Source: Arcobacter sp.
GTDB lineage: Bacteria; Campylobacterota; Campylobacteria; Campylobacterales; Arcobacteraceae
NCBI GenBank assembly: GCA_020048055.1
Contig: JAIFNA010000015.1
Location: 1-64,000, forward strand
Length of the DNA stretch: 64,000 bases
Direction of reading: 5' to 3'
Under the pieces are notes generated by a model. It saw only the letters and a list, made by a program, of their open reading frames with translations, did no database searches and had not been told where the DNA came from. This document shows positions 3,359-18,556 of this stretch, piece after piece (the first letter of the stretch is position 1; each line of letters starts with the position of its first letter). The position numbers and the translations under genes were made by a program.

Positions 3359-4579
3359 GTGAGTTGCGAGACTAAAAAAACATTTATCTCTTATAACAAA
3401 AGTTTAGAGATTTTAGAAAATATTATTATTAAAAATAAAAACACAAAAACAGTTCCACTAATGGAGAGTCTTGGAAATGTTTTAGCCATTGATATTATAG
3501 CAACCTCGCATTACCCAGAGTTTCCAACTTCTGCGATGGATGGATATGCTATAAAATTTGAAAATCAAAAAAATCGATTTTTAAAAATTGATGGGATAAA
3601 TCCAGCAGGAAGTGATGATTATTTAGAGTTAAAAGATGGGTGTTGTATCAAAACTTTTACAGGCTCACTAATTCCAAAAGGGTGCGATACACTTATTCCA
3701 ATTGAAAATGTAATTGTAAAAGACGGTGAGATTAAGATTATAAATGAAGTTCCAAAAGGATTTGCCATTAGAGAGATTGGGGAGAGCTATAAAACTGGTG
3801 ACTTACTAATTAAAAGTGGAACAAAGATTGGATTTGCACAGATTGGTGTGATGGCTGGATTAAATCAAGTAACAGTTGAGATATTTAAAACCCCAATCAT
3901 TGCAATCGCAAGTACAGGAAGTGAGATTTTAGATCTAGGTGAAATTCAAACAAATAAATCACAAATAAGAAGCACAAACCACCTAACACTTGAAGCCCTA
4001 GCAAAACAGTATGGGGCAGATGTAAAGCAAATGGGAGTTGTAAAAGATGATAAAAATTCGATTTTAGACCTCATAAAATCTTCACTGAAAAGTTGTGATA
4101 TTGTTGTTACAACTGGTGGGGTAAGTGTTGGGGATTATGATTTTGTAAAAGATATTATTAAAAATGAAATTGGGGCAGATGTTTTATTTCAAGGGGTAAA
4201 TATCAAGCCAGGACAACATATAATAGTTGCACAGAAAGATGAAAAATTTATCATTGGACTCCCTGGATTTGCATATAGTAGCACGGTTACTTTTATCCTT
4301 TATGTATTGCCGATACTTTTCAAACTTCAAAGAGTTGATAAAAAACTAACAAAAATAAAAGCAATACTAAATCAAAATCACAAAGGAAAAGGCAATAAAA
4401 CAACATTTGAGGCTTGTAATATAAAGCTTATTGATGGTAAATACTATGTTGATTTTGATGGTAAAAAAGATGGTACAAGTGCAATTTTAACAAATATGTT
4501 GGATGCTGGACTTTTAGTTCAAGGTGAAGATAAAGCTCCACTAAATGTTGGTGATTTAGTGGAAGTGATAATTTTATGA
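3359..4579 (+). CDS. moeA: Molybdopterin molybdenumtransferase MoeA
   Basis: Inserts molybdate into adenylylated molybdopterin in the last step of molybdenum cofactor synthesis. The 406-residue protein carries the MoeA signature SAMDGYA near residue 60, the MPT-binding TTGGVSVGDYD near 250, the GLPGF loop near 300 and a C-terminal MoeA domain IV. GTG is the start, preceded by AAAGGATT. Length and domain order are those of a complete enzyme. The cofactor would serve molybdoenzymes such as the NapA-like protein at 30.8-33.1 kb, and mobA is near that gene. Confidence 0.93.
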   Translation: MSCETKKTFISYNKSLEILENIIIKNKNTKTVPLMESLGNVLAIDIIATSHYPEFPTSAMDGYAIKFENQKNRFLKIDGINPAGSDDYLELKDGCCIKTFTGSLIPKGCDTLIPIENVIVKDGEIKIINEVPKGFAIREIGESYKTGDLLIKSGTKIGFAQIGVMAGLNQVTVEIFKTPIIAIASTGSEILDLGEIQTNKSQIRSTNHLTLEALAKQYGADVKQMGVVKDDKNSILDLIKSSLKSCDIVVTTGGVSVGDYDFVKDIIKNEIGADVLFQGVNIKPGQHIIVAQKDEKFIIGLPGFAYSSTVTFILYVLPILFKLQRVDKKLTKIKAILNQNHKGKGNKTTFEACNIKLIDGKYYVDFDGKKDGTSAILTNMLDAGLLVQGEDKAPLNVGDLVEVIIL

Positions 4580-14530: not shown

Positions 14531-15716
14531 TTTGAGCTACAAAACACTTTTTAGGGAAAATCCAATTGTAAGGAAATTAGCAACTATCCAATTTTTTGCA
14601 TATTTTGGAACTTGGTTTTCAAATGTAGCGATTTATAGTATGCTAGTTAGTTTCAATGCTAGCCCCATACTGATCTCAATTGTTGTTGCTATGCATTTTA
14701 TCCCTGGGATTTTGTTAGCTCCATTTAGTGGGACAATTGTTGATAGGATTGATGCTAAAAAACTTTTAGGGATTTTATTATTAGTTGAATTTTCAATGAC
14801 AATGTGTTTTCTTATGATAGAAAGTATTGATGATGTTTGGTTATTGCTTATTTTTATTTTCATAAGGATGACTTCATCATCGATGTTTTTTACAACTGAA
14901 ATGACCCTGTTGCCAAAACTTTTGCATTTGGAAATATTAAGCAAAGCAAATGAAATCCACTCAATTATTTGGTCATTTACATTTACAGCCGGTATGGCTA
15001 TTGGTGGTTTGGTTGTAAATTTTTATGGGACAACTACTGCATTTATAATCGATGGAGTCTTTTTTTTATTCGCATTTTTAACACTCATAAATACAGGCAT
15101 AAAATATACCCACGAAACAAGTCATGAAAAAATAATCATGGCAATAAAAAGTGGAATAAAATATATTTTAGAAAACAAACATCTAATTAAACTTATCTTA
15201 TTGCACGGTACCGTTGGATTTACATCATTTGATACTATTGTTACTCTTCTGGCTGATTTTCACTACAAATATGTAATTGCTGTTCCACTTGCTATTGGAT
15301 TATCAAACGCTACAAGGTCGTTAGCTCTTATGGTGGGACCTTTTGTGCTTGGTTCTTGGGTAAACAAAGAGAGGTTGTTTTATGTTTTTTTAATTCAAGG
15401 TTTTGGGATAATGCTATGGGCAACCCTTCAATATAATTTTTACCTTGGATTATTTGGATTATTTTTAACTGGACTTGCCACCACAACACTTTGGTCTTTT
15501 ACCTACGCCATGCTTCAAGAGGAAGTTGAAAAAAGATATTTAGGTCGTGTTTTAGCATACAATGAGATGTTTTTTATGTTTACAAATGCCTCAACTACAA
15601 TCATAACTGGTATGTTGGCTATCTATTTTGAGCTATATTTTGTAACTGCTTTACTTGGTATTTCATTTATTTTGATAGCATTTTATTATAAAAATGGTAT
15701 ATTAAAAACAAAATAA
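14517..15716 (+). CDS. MFS transporter (EntS/MFS_3-like)
   Basis: About 399 residues with some 10-12 hydrophobic segments and the MFS loop 2-3 motif SGTIVDRIDAKKLLG near residue 80. Sequence character (FFAYFGTWFSNVAIYSMLV at the start, ILENKHLIKLILLHG in the middle) is that of the MFS_3 group, which includes exporters of siderophores and drugs. The ORF opens at TTG 14517, inside the adaptor gene; TTG 14532 is an equally plausible start. Pairing with the HlyD-like adaptor suggests export. Substrate unknown. Confidence 0.85.
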   Translation: MSLNNLSYKTLFRENPIVRKLATIQFFAYFGTWFSNVAIYSMLVSFNASPILISIVVAMHFIPGILLAPFSGTIVDRIDAKKLLGILLLVEFSMTMCFLMIESIDDVWLLLIFIFIRMTSSSMFFTTEMTLLPKLLHLEILSKANEIHSIIWSFTFTAGMAIGGLVVNFYGTTTAFIIDGVFFLFAFLTLINTGIKYTHETSHEKIIMAIKSGIKYILENKHLIKLILLHGTVGFTSFDTIVTLLADFHYKYVIAVPLAIGLSNATRSLALMVGPFVLGSWVNKERLFYVFLIQGFGIMLWATLQYNFYLGLFGLFLTGLATTTLWSFTYAMLQEEVEKRYLGRVLAYNEMFFMFTNASTTIITGMLAIYFELYFVTALLGISFILIAFYYKNGILKTK

Positions 15717-15729
15717 TTTAACAAAATAT

Positions 15730-15869
15730 CCTTTTAATGGGACATTTTGATTAAAGCGAATTAATTCGAACTTTAGGATTTGCTACTTTAAGATTGATGT
15801 TTCAATCCGCTAAAAGTAGAAATTAAACAAACGGTCCCTTTAAAATGGGACATTTTAAAGGGATAAAAA
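15730..15869 (+). ncRNA. Candidate structured 5' leader RNA (copy A)
   Basis: About 140 nt ending at the ATG of the gene at 15870, homologous along its length to the leader of glnK (27981-28135, minus). Structure seen: hairpin P1 CGAATTAATTCG (15757-15768); conserved single strand CTTTAGGATTTG (15771-15782); P2 with outer stem CTACTTT (15783-15789)/AAAGTAG (15813-15819) and inner stem ATTGA (15793-15797)/TCAAT (15802-15806); then GTCCC (15834-15838)/GGGAC (15847-15851). Alternatively CCCTTT (15836-15841) pairs with the ribosome site AAAGGG (15857-15862). Stems covary with copy B. A riboswitch-like translational switch is inferred. Confidence 0.6.
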
Positions 15870-16109
15870 ATGGATTTCAAAGACAATATCGAACTTAGAG
15901 TTTTACTACTAGCAATTTATAAAAAAGAACACAATGAAAATTTTAGTGATGTTTTGAAAATGATGGAAAATAGTCGTGTATTTGATATTAAAACTGGTAA
16001 AAAATATCTAACTGAACTAAAAAATATGAATTTTCTAACTGAAGATAGTTTAACTTTTATAGGGGTAGAGGAAGCAAAAAAAATTGAGTTGGAGTTTAAA
16101 ATTTCCTAA
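15870..16109 (+). CDS. Small protein of unknown function with structured leader
   Basis: A 79-residue cytoplasmic protein, not recognised. The sequence (MDFKDNIELRVLLLAIYKK, then TGKKYLTELKNMNFLTEDSL) looks like a compact, mostly helical domain ending in a beta-wing, compatible with a winged-helix fold. AAAGGG is the ribosome site, 7 nt before the ATG. Its leader is homologous to that of glnK, so the two genes may answer the same signal, possibly nitrogen status. It lies just upstream of the G9 promoter of the peptide operon and could be either its regulator or unrelated. Confidence 0.6.
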   Translation: MDFKDNIELRVLLLAIYKKEHNENFSDVLKMMENSRVFDIKTGKKYLTELKNMNFLTEDSLTFIGVEEAKKIELEFKIS

Positions 16110-16113
16110 TTGA

Positions 16114-16144
16114 TTGTTTTTTAAGCTATGGGGGGGGGTATAAT
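16114..16144 (+). promoter_or_regulatory. Promoter with G9 homopolymer in the spacer (candidate phase-variable)
   Basis: A run of nine G (16130-16138) abuts a perfect TATAAT -10 box (16139-16144). TTGTTT at 16114-16119 is a possible -35, giving a 19-nt spacer; loss of two G would give 17. Poly-G tracts are the typical slipping repeats of Campylobacterota. The start of transcription would be near 16151, 40 nt before the peptide gene's ATG. Confidence 0.65.
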
Positions 16145-16190
16145 CTCCTGCGAACTTTTTTTAAGTTTGAAATAATTTATGGAGGCTATT

Positions 16191-16487
16191 ATGCTAAAAA
16201 TTAGCAAGGTTTTATTAGGATTAGTTGTTGCTTCAGGTATTGCATTTGCAAATCCTACAAGTGAATTTGGTGAACAAAGTATCAGTAAGGCTGATAGTGA
16301 GTTTTTATTTAAAAATAGTGTTGCTTCAAATGTACTTACCTTAAGCAGTGATGAGATGAAAGCTACAGATGGAGAATTTTGGCCTATTGTGTGGGGTTTA
16401 ACTTTTACTTATGTATCATTTGCTAATGCTCCATCATATGGAGGTAAAGTTTACAAAGGTAGAGCCACTAGATATAGAAATTGGTAA
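16191..16487 (+). CDS. Secreted peptide precursor with bacteriocin-like processing motif
   Basis: A 98-residue protein with a perfect ribosome site GGAGG 5 nt before ATG 16191 (an earlier in-frame ATG at 16179 overlaps that site). Residues 1-20 (MLKISKVLLGLVVASGIAFA) form a Sec signal peptide. Residues 51-61 (LSSDEMKATDG) resemble the LSxxEMxxxxGG leaders cut by C39 peptidases, with DG in place of GG. The predicted core, EFWPIVWG onward to residue 98, is aromatic and ends with basic residues. A C39 peptidase and a beta-barrel are encoded 0.5-1.7 kb downstream. It could be a bacteriocin, signal peptide or surface-fibre subunit. Family not recognised. Confidence 0.7.
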   Translation: MLKISKVLLGLVVASGIAFANPTSEFGEQSISKADSEFLFKNSVASNVLTLSSDEMKATDGEFWPIVWGLTFTYVSFANAPSYGGKVYKGRATRYRNW

Positions 16488-16496
16488 CAAACAAAA

Positions 16497-16760
16497 ATGA
16501 GTGTTGATTTATATGAAATTATATCTTCAATTTTATTTCTCATATCTTGTCTTGGATTAATAAATATTAAACAATATGGGAACAGACTAGGTTTTTTTTA
16601 TATTCTGTTGTTTATGTTAGTATTTCCTCTTTCATGGCTTTTTGACGAATATATAGATTATCTGTTGTCTGATATAGTTTCAATAATTTGTTATTCCGTA
16701 TTGTCATTTATTGCTTTAAAATTTAAATTTAATCAAGTAAAAAATCATCAAAATGGGTAA
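16497..16760 (+). CDS. Small membrane protein of the peptide operon
   Basis: An 87-residue protein with three predicted membrane helices (about residues 7-25, 31-48 and 54-73) and a short basic tail. No family recognised. It begins 9 nt after the peptide gene and overlaps the next small membrane gene by 8 nt, so the three are co-transcribed. Two tiny membrane proteins right after a peptide gene is the usual place for immunity proteins, but this is only positional inference. Confidence 0.65.
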   Translation: MSVDLYEIISSILFLISCLGLINIKQYGNRLGFFYILLFMLVFPLSWLFDEYIDYLLSDIVSIICYSVLSFIALKFKFNQVKNHQNG

Positions 16761-16935
16761 CTTTTTTAAGTTTATATTGAATGTATTAACTATGCCAGTA
16801 TTTACATTTTTTGTAGGCTATGGAATATTTCAAGAATCATCTAAAATAGGTGGAATTATAGTATGTATAATTGCACTTATTTTCTTTGTTTTTGAGATGA
16901 TTAGTTTTTTATCAAAAGATGATAAATACCAATAA
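16753..16935 (+). CDS. Second small membrane protein of the peptide operon
   Basis: A 60-residue protein with two predicted membrane helices (about 5-25 and 31-52) and a charged C-terminus (SKDDKYQ). Starts inside the 3' end of the preceding gene (ATGGG at 16753), so it is translationally coupled. No family recognised. Candidate immunity or accessory protein by position alone. Confidence 0.6.
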   Translation: MGNFFKFILNVLTMPVFTFFVGYGIFQESSKIGGIIVCIIALIFFVFEMISFLSKDDKYQ

Positions 16936-16979
16936 TTTTTATCCATTTTTTACTTCAAATACCACATTAAAGGAAACAT

Positions 16980-17849
16980 ATAAAAAATCTTCTATTATTA
17001 CTAACACCATTTTTGCTTATGGCAAAACCTGTCAAAGTTGATGAGATTTTGACTGATAAAAATGAATTTAAAAGTGATTTTTCGATTGCTTACTCAAATA
17101 TCACACGAAAAACAGGTAGTTTTTCTCCGATTACATATCAAACAAATGGCGGAGATTTTGTAACGATACCCACTTATTTAGGGATTGATAGTTCAAACCA
17201 AGATTATATTAATTATGGTACGGCTTTAAAATACGGTATCTCAAAAGATTTGGAAGTTTTTTCAAACTTAAACTTCTACACAAGCGATACTCATACTTCT
17301 GGAAATAGTTTTGAAACACAGAGCGATAAAGGGTTTAATAATCTAAATTTAGGACTTACTTATCAAATCAAAAAAGAAGATGATAAGCCATCTTTTTTAG
17401 TAGGTGGAAGTGTAGATTTGTTAGAAAATGCTCAATTTAGTGACAACCATAAACAAACTCAAAAGTTTAAAAGTTATTCATTTTTCGCTACAAGTTATTA
17501 TACTGTTGACCCTTTAGTCTTTTTGATAAAAGCTGACTATAGACTCAATCTTAAAAAAGAAGATGCGAACAAATCTCTTGATAATGGAGAAATTATAGTA
17601 CTTACCCCTCAAATATATTTTGCCGTAAATCCATTTGCCAACCTAAATTGGGGTATTAAATATCAGTTTACAGGTAAAAATAAAGTAGATGAAAAAATCG
17701 TCTCAAACAGTGGCTCATCTGTAAGTATGTTATTTGGTGTGAGTTATGAGTTTAACTCAAAAACAATTTTTGCACTAGATTATGAAAAAAATGATAACAA
17801 TGAATACTCTATGAACAATATTAATATGAGTTTGTCGTATAAATTTTAA
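16980..17849 (+). CDS. Outer-membrane beta-barrel protein, possible peptide export pore (AUA start?)
   Basis: A beta-barrel protein of about 289 residues: repeated alternating strands (FSIAYSNITRK, YGTALKYGISK, NLGLTYQIKK, MLFGVSYEF) and a C-terminal LSYKF ending in Phe, the outer-membrane insertion signal. No ATG/GTG lies upstream of TTG 17013, which would truncate the signal peptide. In the same frame, ATA 16980, 5 nt after AGGA, begins IKNLLLLLTPFLLMA, a good signal peptide, so AUA initiation is inferred. The stop overlaps the C39 gene's ATG. In Fap amyloid systems a barrel (FapF) works with a C39 peptidase (FapD); that analogy is inference. Confidence 0.7.
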   Translation: MKNLLLLLTPFLLMAKPVKVDEILTDKNEFKSDFSIAYSNITRKTGSFSPITYQTNGGDFVTIPTYLGIDSSNQDYINYGTALKYGISKDLEVFSNLNFYTSDTHTSGNSFETQSDKGFNNLNLGLTYQIKKEDDKPSFLVGGSVDLLENAQFSDNHKQTQKFKSYSFFATSYYTVDPLVFLIKADYRLNLKKEDANKSLDNGEIIVLTPQIYFAVNPFANLNWGIKYQFTGKNKVDEKIVSNSGSSVSMLFGVSYEFNSKTIFALDYEKNDNNEYSMNNINMSLSYKF

Positions 17850-18520
17850 TGAAAAGCATACTATCTATTTTAGTTCTACCGACCATTTTCTTTGGTGCGG
17901 TTAATATTTATCAAAAAGATTTTAGCATTCAAAAGCCTATTAGGTCTTGGATAGAATTCAAAAATGAAAATCTTGTAAGACAAGAATATGATTATAGTTG
18001 TGGTAGTGCAACACTTGCTACTATACTTAAATACTATTATGGGTTTCAGGTTGAGGAGAAAGATGTTTTGGATGATATATTAAAATCCAAAGGTTTTGAT
18101 GTGTCAAAAAAAATATTGCTTGAAAGTGGCGAGACGAATTTATCTTTTTTTGACTTATCCGAATTTTCACAACGAAAAGGATTTAAAGCTATAGGTTTAG
18201 CAATCGATATGGATTCTCTAAAGAATCTTAAAGTGCCAGTGATTTTATTTGTAAAAGTGCGAAAAGATGAACATTTCACGGTCTATAAAAGTATGGACGA
18301 AAATTATGTTTATTTGGCTGACCCATCTTTTGGAAATATCAAAGTATCAATATCAAAATTTAAAGAGATGTTTTTTCAAAGAGAAGATTTAAAACATCCT
18401 GGAAAAATATTGGCAATAGTACCTTTGCAAAATGGATACAATATAAACAAGAACTTTCTAAATGTTAATCAAAATTCAGATTTTATTTATGAGGTAATTA
18501 AAGATAACAATACAAAATAA
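17849..18520 (+). CDS. Exported C39-family (bacteriocin-processing type) peptidase
   Basis: A 223-residue stand-alone C39 cysteine peptidase. A signal peptide (residues 1-16) exports it to the periplasm, unlike the usual C39 domain fused to an ABC exporter. The catalytic set is visible: Gln45 and Cys51 in RQEYDYSCGSATLATIL, His142 in DEHFTVYK and Asp158 in ADPSFGN. Its start overlaps the stop of the beta-barrel gene. It probably cleaves the secreted peptide at 16191 after LSSDEMKATDG; FapD-type peptidases are the closest functional model I know. Substrate assignment is inference from the operon. Confidence 0.85.
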   Translation: MKSILSILVLPTIFFGAVNIYQKDFSIQKPIRSWIEFKNENLVRQEYDYSCGSATLATILKYYYGFQVEEKDVLDDILKSKGFDVSKKILLESGETNLSFFDLSEFSQRKGFKAIGLAIDMDSLKNLKVPVILFVKVRKDEHFTVYKSMDENYVYLADPSFGNIKVSISKFKEMFFQREDLKHPGKILAIVPLQNGYNINKNFLNVNQNSDFIYEVIKDNNTK

Positions 18521-18556
18521 TATGAAGTTTAAAATCCAATAAATCTTTTGGCTCTA

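What the first reader, a model, noticed from the sequence alone, without database searches (positions are those of the whole stretch)
16130..16144. Nine-G tract immediately upstream of a perfect -10 box: phase-variable promoter
Seen directly: G9 (16130-16138) followed without gap by TATAAT. Poly-G tracts in Campylobacterota slip at high frequency. Changing the -35/-10 spacing by single bases is an established mechanism of graded phase variation in other bacteria. A switchable promoter fits a peptide system aimed at competitors or the cell surface.
Basis: partly seen in the sequence, partly recalled or inferred. Interest (0 to 1): 0.75.

Follow-up and report, generated by a model that had tools for sequence, protein, structure and literature searches.

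The report
Poly-G switch promoter for peptide secretion
A run of nine Gs sits against the start signal of a gene cluster that seems to export a small protein, and similar G-runs at the start signals of related clusters in two other bacteria suggest it is a slippery DNA switch that randomly turns secretion up and down.

Summary
Only two tracts of eight or more G exist in this 2.0 Mb genome.

The tract lies 46 nt upstream of the first ATG of an operon: small secreted precursor, two small ORFs, outer-membrane barrel, C39 peptidase. The barrel's best solved-structure match is FapF and the peptidase's best family match is FapD. The operon works like a Fap-type secretion system, but it is not a Fap member.

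The phase-variable-promoter reading is well supported by comparison. Two other genomes with few G tracts carry G10-ATGA-TATAAT and G7-TAAAAT upstream of the precursor genes of the same operon type. Across 398 order genomes, a G tract within 6 nt of TATAAT occurs in 59, against 19 for a permuted hexamer. 53 of 85 listed tracts abut TATAAT with no spacer, most of them upstream of genes. Sister species have an empty site, so promoter and operon form one inserted cassette. No MutL C-terminal domain was found in the genome.

Tract-length variation, the transcription start and any effect on expression remain unshown. Promoter poly-G switches are already known (porA, capC). What is new is the regulated system and the recurrent abutting architecture.

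The parts
16130..16138 (+). G9 tract, proposed slippage element
   Evidence: Read directly; one of two tracts of 8 or more G in the genome
16139..16144 (+). TATAAT, proposed -10 box, no spacer after the tract
   Evidence: same zero-spacer arrangement in 53 of 85 listed tracts, this one included
16110..16129 (+). A/T-rich upstream promoter part (TTGATTGTTTTTTAAGCTAT) containing TTTAAG
   Evidence: TTTAA[AG] lies within 30 nt upstream of 16 of 28 comparable tract clusters, shuffle mean 4.5
16181..16185 (+). GGAGG ribosome-binding site
   Evidence: by eye
16191..16487 (+). 98-aa secreted precursor: Sec-type signal, leader LSSDEMKATDG, mature part EFWPIVWG...RYRNW
   Evidence: no Pfam, NCBIfam or PHROGs match
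16497..16760 (+). 87-aa hydrophobic ORF, function unknown
   Evidence: no family match
16753..16935 (+). 60-aa hydrophobic ORF, function unknown
   Evidence: only sub-threshold Pfam matches
16983..17849 (+). 12-stranded outer-membrane barrel, FapF-like fold; codon before 16983 is ATA, start unsure
   Evidence: Model pLDDT 85.6; FapF 5o65 Z 25.4, rmsd 2.2, 242 aligned
17849..18520 (+). C39 peptidase, FapD-like; C51, H142 and D158 invariant in the 14-sequence alignment
   Evidence: Peptidase_C39 1.3e-21; C39_FapD 3.6e-27
16110..18556 (+). Segment absent from sister species: promoter plus whole operon
   Evidence: L190 and L189 join the 15870-16109 gene to serB with 15 and 41 nt between the matches
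15870..16109 (+). 79-aa conserved upstream gene, marks the left edge of the insertion
   Evidence: Conserved in L188, L189, L190, L195

Best explanation
The G9 tract is the variable part of the promoter of a horizontally inserted, Fap-like secretion operon. Shown: sequence, position, operon content, empty site in sister species, and recurrence of poly-G at a -10-like box upstream of related precursor genes. Inferred: RNA polymerase starts just downstream of TATAAT, and strand slippage without MutL-dependent repair changes the G number. Each G then shifts the A/T-rich upstream signal by one base (about 34 degrees) against the -10 box, giving graded or high/low transcription of the whole operon. 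The 98-aa product is exported by Sec, cut by the periplasmic C39 peptidase after ...KATDG, and leaves through the FapF-like barrel. A clone would thus contain secreting and non-secreting cells.
For: Tract and box read directly; chance low. L026 has G10-ATGA-TATAAT 49 nt before a precursor gene and L028 has G7-TAAAAT about 190 nt before one. All tracts of 7 or more G are few in those genomes: 10 and 12 start positions, so a chance joint placement is about 5e-5 after choosing 2 of 15. Order-wide: 59 of 398 genomes with TATAAT, 19 of 398 with permuted TTAATA; 53 of 85 listed tracts have zero spacer; 41 of 49 distinct zero-spacer tracts examined look intergenic. One promoter cluster of 12 loci has G8, G9 and G10 forms. 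Some relatives have TTGACA, a G10 in the spacer and TATAAT at 17 nt (L061, L186). No MutL_C in the genome, while the control rings in 11 of 14. Published: tracts of eight or more switch expression in C. jejuni (PMC6321876, passage); promoter poly-G in capC varies G4 to G>=10 (PMC7168839, passages). Empty site.
Against: No tract-length variant of this locus could be examined: one genome per species is held. No transcription start is mapped. 13 of 16 operons with a recognisable precursor have no poly-G of 7 or more beside a -10-like box upstream of it. Of 47 genomes of the own family searched, only this one has the arrangement. L028 has only G7 and TAAAAT, with a long gap to the gene. With G9 no good -35 sits at 17 nt (closest TTGTTT at 19), so it is not known whether G9 is a high or low state. 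Eight of 49 zero-spacer tracts in relatives look intragenic, so part of the excess may come from coding Gly-Tyr-Asn.
Confidence: 0.74

Rival explanations
1. The promoter is real but the tract is stable or neutral: G9 is a chance or decaying run beside an ordinary -10 box and does not switch expression in practice.
For: Only one genome of the species can be seen; most related operons lack a tract; two G9 tracts in a 2 Mb genome is not itself extreme.
Against: Poly-G at a -10-like box upstream of precursor genes in two other operons of the type in tract-poor genomes; order-wide excess of the abutting arrangement.
Confidence: 0.15
2. The tract is transcribed from a promoter further upstream and works in the 5' leader, for instance as target of a small RNA, as the RepG/tlpB G-repeat of H. 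pylori.
For: [quoted passage not shown] A/T-rich -10-like words lie upstream.
Against: A perfect TATAAT follows the tract at 46 nt from the ATG, close to the 49 nt of L026; abutting TATAAT is the recurrent feature in relatives.
Confidence: 0.07
3. The G-run belongs to a terminator of the upstream 79-aa gene.
For: A consensus scan flags a stem at 16129-16150 followed by T-rich sequence.
Against: The fold is not better than shuffles (z -0.87, 33 of 200 fold as well); L026 and the Campylobacter examples have no such stem by eye; the tract is absent with the operon in sister species although the upstream gene stays.
Confidence: 0.04

Closest known systems
Neisseria meningitidis porA promoter
   Same: Poly-G between -35 and -10 elements; length changes alter expression level (PMC3639595, passages seen)
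   Different: Not homologous; classical -35 present there; different organism and a porin cargo; variation is proven there and not here
Campylobacter capC autotransporter promoter
   Same: [quoted passage not shown] loci like L046, which start MKLSYHTSKVLMGVSISALL and may be of this type (recalled, untested), show G8-10 abutting TATAAT
   Different: Drives an autotransporter; upstream motif TTTAAACTTAAATTTAT differs in spacing from the window
Helicobacter canadensis promoter tracts
   Same: Five promoter tracts with read heterogeneity (PMC2823697, passages seen)
   Different: Longer tracts (G13-G16, one A12); other cargo
Pseudomonas Fap secretion (FapD/FapF)
   Same: Periplasmic C39 peptidase plus 12-stranded barrel plus Sec-exported substrate (PMC5557850, passages seen)
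   Different: Substrate is a 98-aa leader peptide without amyloid repeats; no N-terminal coiled coil in the barrel model; C39 far below the FapD cut-off; poly-G promoter; PMC3792158 (passages seen) limits Fap to Beta-, Gamma- and Deltaproteobacteria
Double-glycine leader peptides / class II microcins
   Same: Leader of the form LSxxEMxxTxG and a C39 peptidase (consensus of the double-glycine leader recalled)
   Different: Sec-type signal before the leader; T-D-G not G-G at the proposed cut; the C39 is free-standing, no ABC part in the ORF

Membership tests
Promoter-embedded poly-G phase-variable locus (porA/capC type) | Tract of at least 8 G | tested here: met
   G9
Promoter-embedded poly-G phase-variable locus (porA/capC type) | Tract lies in a promoter, next to the -10 box | tested here: met
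   By sequence only: TATAAT abuts, ATG 46 nt on; recurrent in relatives; start site not mapped
Promoter-embedded poly-G phase-variable locus (porA/capC type) | Tract length varies within a population | not testable with these tools
   No reads; one genome per species
Promoter-embedded poly-G phase-variable locus (porA/capC type) | Expression depends on tract length | not testable with these tools
   Needs reporter fusions
Fap secretion system | FapF-type outer-membrane barrel | tested here: met
   Best PDB match FapF, Z 25.4, rmsd 2.2, 242 aligned; next non-FapF Z 23.7
Fap secretion system | FapF N-terminal coiled coil | tested here: not met
   Model has only helix 3-13, in the signal-peptide region, and a three-residue turn before the first strand at 29
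Fap secretion system | FapD-level C39 peptidase | tested here: not met
   Best family is C39_FapD (3.6e-27) but 95 bits against a cut-off of 330
Fap secretion system | FapB/FapC amyloid-repeat substrate | tested here: not met
   98-aa precursor, no Pfam or NCBIfam match; no repeats by eye
Double-glycine leader peptide exported by a peptidase-containing ABC transporter | C39 domain fused to an ABC transporter | tested here: not met
   223-aa ORF with the C39 domain at 40-175 only
Double-glycine leader peptide exported by a peptidase-containing ABC transporter | LSxxELxxIxGG-like leader | tested here: inconclusive
   LSSDEMKATDG; the 16 precursors aligned share E/Q/D-[ML]..[TI].G, but were found by a motif search of that form

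The most novel reading that the evidence does not exclude
G8-10 abutting TATAAT is a distinct, portable promoter class of Campylobacterota in which the variable tract replaces the usual bases just upstream of the -10 box. It travels with surface and secretion cassettes. Here it makes an acquired Fap-like exporter of leader peptides, so far undescribed in this phylum in the papers searched, a bet-hedging trait of a lineage otherwise nearly free of long G tracts.
Probability: 0.4. Interest if true: 0.7.

Novelty: new variant of a known kind. Interest (0 to 1): 0.58.

Why it matters
It extends promoter poly-G switching from known surface proteins to a complete small-protein secretion operon, acquired as a unit with its promoter by a lineage with almost no other long G tracts. 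It also gives a searchable signature (G8-10 abutting TATAAT) for finding transcriptionally phase-variable genes across the order, where most attention has gone to tracts inside reading frames. The precursor family and its free-standing C39 peptidase offer a simple system for asking what a periplasmic FapD-like protease cuts, a question left open for Fap itself (PMC5557850, passage).

Tried and rejected
Terminator reading: the flagged stem folds no better than shuffles. Finding strain variants: not possible, one genome per species, and the window's own records may be left out of genome contigs. Precursor homology by plain protein search: 1 of 60 relatives, itself only, so the C39 peptidase was used instead. 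Pfam, NCBIfam and PHROGs gave nothing for the precursor. The weak C39 hit in G004 (3.1e-4) lies in a 722-aa frame and was not counted. A classical -35 at 17 nt was looked for by eye and not found in the window. In one search, loci L101, L102, L103, L110 and L114 have little or no DNA upstream of the C39 gene, and several others (L025, L027, L029-L034, L112, L113, L115, L116 among them) gave no precursor by the motif; they are outside the count of 16. L095 and L097 repeat L026 and L037. In one search, 69 loci were given: 4 were duplicates and 65 were classified by a crude 60-codon rule that calls some split genes intergenic (L049, L064 and L065 look coding by eye). One search's list was cut: 34 of 59 genomes with matches were listed, and rests on those. 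The sampled order genomes are related, so the counts are not independent.

Full report
1. Observation. The window reads TTTTTTAAGCTAT-GGGGGGGGG-TATAAT-CTCCTG at the stated place, with G9 at 16130-16138 and TATAAT at 16139-16144. Dinucleotide shuffles of the window give 0.02 G9 on average and no G9TATAAT in 100. TATAAT itself is common (106 copies, 131 expected). In the whole genome (2.0 Mb, 18 contigs) only two tracts reach 8 G, both G9, six reach 7, and the 15-mer occurs once. The other G9 (contig C3) lies just upstream of the TTG start of an outer-membrane-like ORF.

2. What it drives. TATAAT is followed after 46 nt by ATG 16191 with GGAGG in front. The operon encodes a 98-aa precursor with a Sec-type signal (by eye), two small hydrophobic ORFs, an outer-membrane protein and a C39 peptidase. 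The peptidase matches Peptidase_C39 (1.3e-21), and its best NCBIfam model is C39_FapD, well below cut-off. C51, H142 and D158 are invariant in the 14-sequence alignment. The outer-membrane protein models as a 12-stranded barrel (pLDDT 85.6). Its best solved match is FapF (Foldseek 3.6e-12; Z 25.4, rmsd 2.2 over 242 residues). By sequence profile neither FapF nor any other barrel is matched clearly.

3. The precursor family. A search of 398 order genomes with the C39 profile gives 27 with E <= 1e-25, and genome contigs gives 15 loci. Sixteen operons, the window included, have a recognisable precursor upstream: a signal sequence, a D.xF(L/M)FG-like block, and L...EM..T.G before the variable mature part. 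Because these were picked by a motif of that form, its presence is by construction; the conserved FLF block and the signal sequences are not. Four of the sixteen (L104-L107) come from one genus, and L039 holds only a fragment of the C39 gene. Mature parts are diverse and often end in aromatic and basic residues, and some are glycine-rich and hydrophobic (L104).

4. Poly-G recurs in this operon type. Three of the 16 have a coding-strand tract of 7 or more G upstream of the precursor genes beside a -10-like box: the window; L026 (a Campylobacterales MAG), G10-ATGA-TATAAT, 49 nt before a precursor ATG; and L028 (a Sulfurovum MAG), G7-TAAAAT, about 190 nt before. The other 13 do not. Those two genomes are poor in tracts: 10 and 12 start positions of G7 in all. 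A rough estimate for such placement in two of fifteen others by chance is 5e-5. TTTAAG precedes the tract in all three. A Helicobacter-like relative with very many tracts (G392) has G10 inside a decayed extra precursor reading frame.

5. The architecture recurs in the order. G8+ followed within 6 nt by TATAAT occurs in 59 of 398 genomes. The same with permuted TTAATA occurs in 19 of 398, and reversed TATAAT in 24 by my count of the table. Of 85 distinct tracts listed, which covers 34 of the 59 genomes, 53 have no spacer; of 21 in the permuted control, 4. I examined 65 distinct loci: 41 intergenic and 8 intragenic with zero spacer, 15 and 1 with a spacer. Forty of the 41 were grouped into 28 clusters by upstream sequence; TTTAA[AG] lies within 30 nt upstream in 16 of 28, shuffle mean 4.5, maximum 11. 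The largest cluster (12 loci) drives mostly autotransporter-like proteins and contains G8, G9 and G10 forms, which shows length change at one promoter type between genomes. Some loci show TTGACA, a G10 in the spacer and TATAAT at 17 nt (L061, L186). Relatedness and the crude gene rule weaken the exact numbers, not the direction.

6. Insertion. In sister species, genomes G001 (L190) and G006 (L189), the 79-aa gene ending at 16109 is followed almost directly by serB (15 and 41 nt between the matches), so 16110-18556 is missing there. Two others (L188, L195) have a metallophosphoesterase-like gene in that place (named by eye). The C39 gene is in 1 of 8 genomes of the genus. Promoter and operon therefore arrived, or were lost, together; acquisition is the simpler reading as only this genome of the own family has it.

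7. Mechanism. Campylobacter sigma-70 promoters show a periodic A/T-rich signal and an extended -10 box rather than a -35 box (PMC3656092, PMC3847290; passages). The tract occupies the bases just upstream of the -10 box, so each G gained or lost rotates the upstream A/T-rich part by one base against the box. Graded output is expected, as for porA (PMC3639595; passages). Slippage of tracts of 8 or more is published for C. jejuni (PMC6321876; passage). MutL_C is not found in this genome, with the control found in 11 of 14. Not shown: slippage here, the start site, and which lengths are high or low.

8. Known and new. Promoter poly-G loci are known: porA, capC (PMC7168839; passages), and five promoter tracts in H. 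canadensis (PMC2823697; passages). Searches listed no paper whose title or abstract start describes the abutting class or a Fap-like operon of this phylum; full texts were read only in passages. PMC3792158 restricts Fap to three other classes and notes that FapD and FapF belong to larger families, which fits this system being a relative in workings but not a member. Overall: a new variant of a known kind of switch, on an operon type I did not find described.

Noticed in passing
L003 around 1500-1525 (G000 contig C3:72733-72741, minus strand): The genome's only other G9 tract sits directly upstream of the TTG start of a 286-aa outer-membrane-like ORF beside a ZnuA-like gene; it may be a second, translational, switch.
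   Followed up: partly
window 15715-15870: Dispersed repeat with 13 matches (itself and its own inverted part included) in the own genome, absent from the same place in sister locus L190.
   Followed up: partly
window 16980-16982: The codon where homologous barrel genes start (ATG or TTG) reads ATA here; the next possible starts lie inside the signal sequence.
   Followed up: no
L099 reverse complement 4065-4218: A decayed extra precursor reading frame with G10 inside its signal region in a tract-rich Helicobacter-like genome.
   Followed up: partly
L061 and the other G117 places: Four places in one genome with G8+ AGTGA TATAAT; the one read (L061) has TTGACA at 17 nt before a gene that looks like a chemoreceptor: a clear poly-G spacer promoter.
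   Followed up: no
L104-L107: Tandem precursors with glycine-rich hydrophobic mature parts in one genus, bacteriocin-like in look.
   Followed up: no
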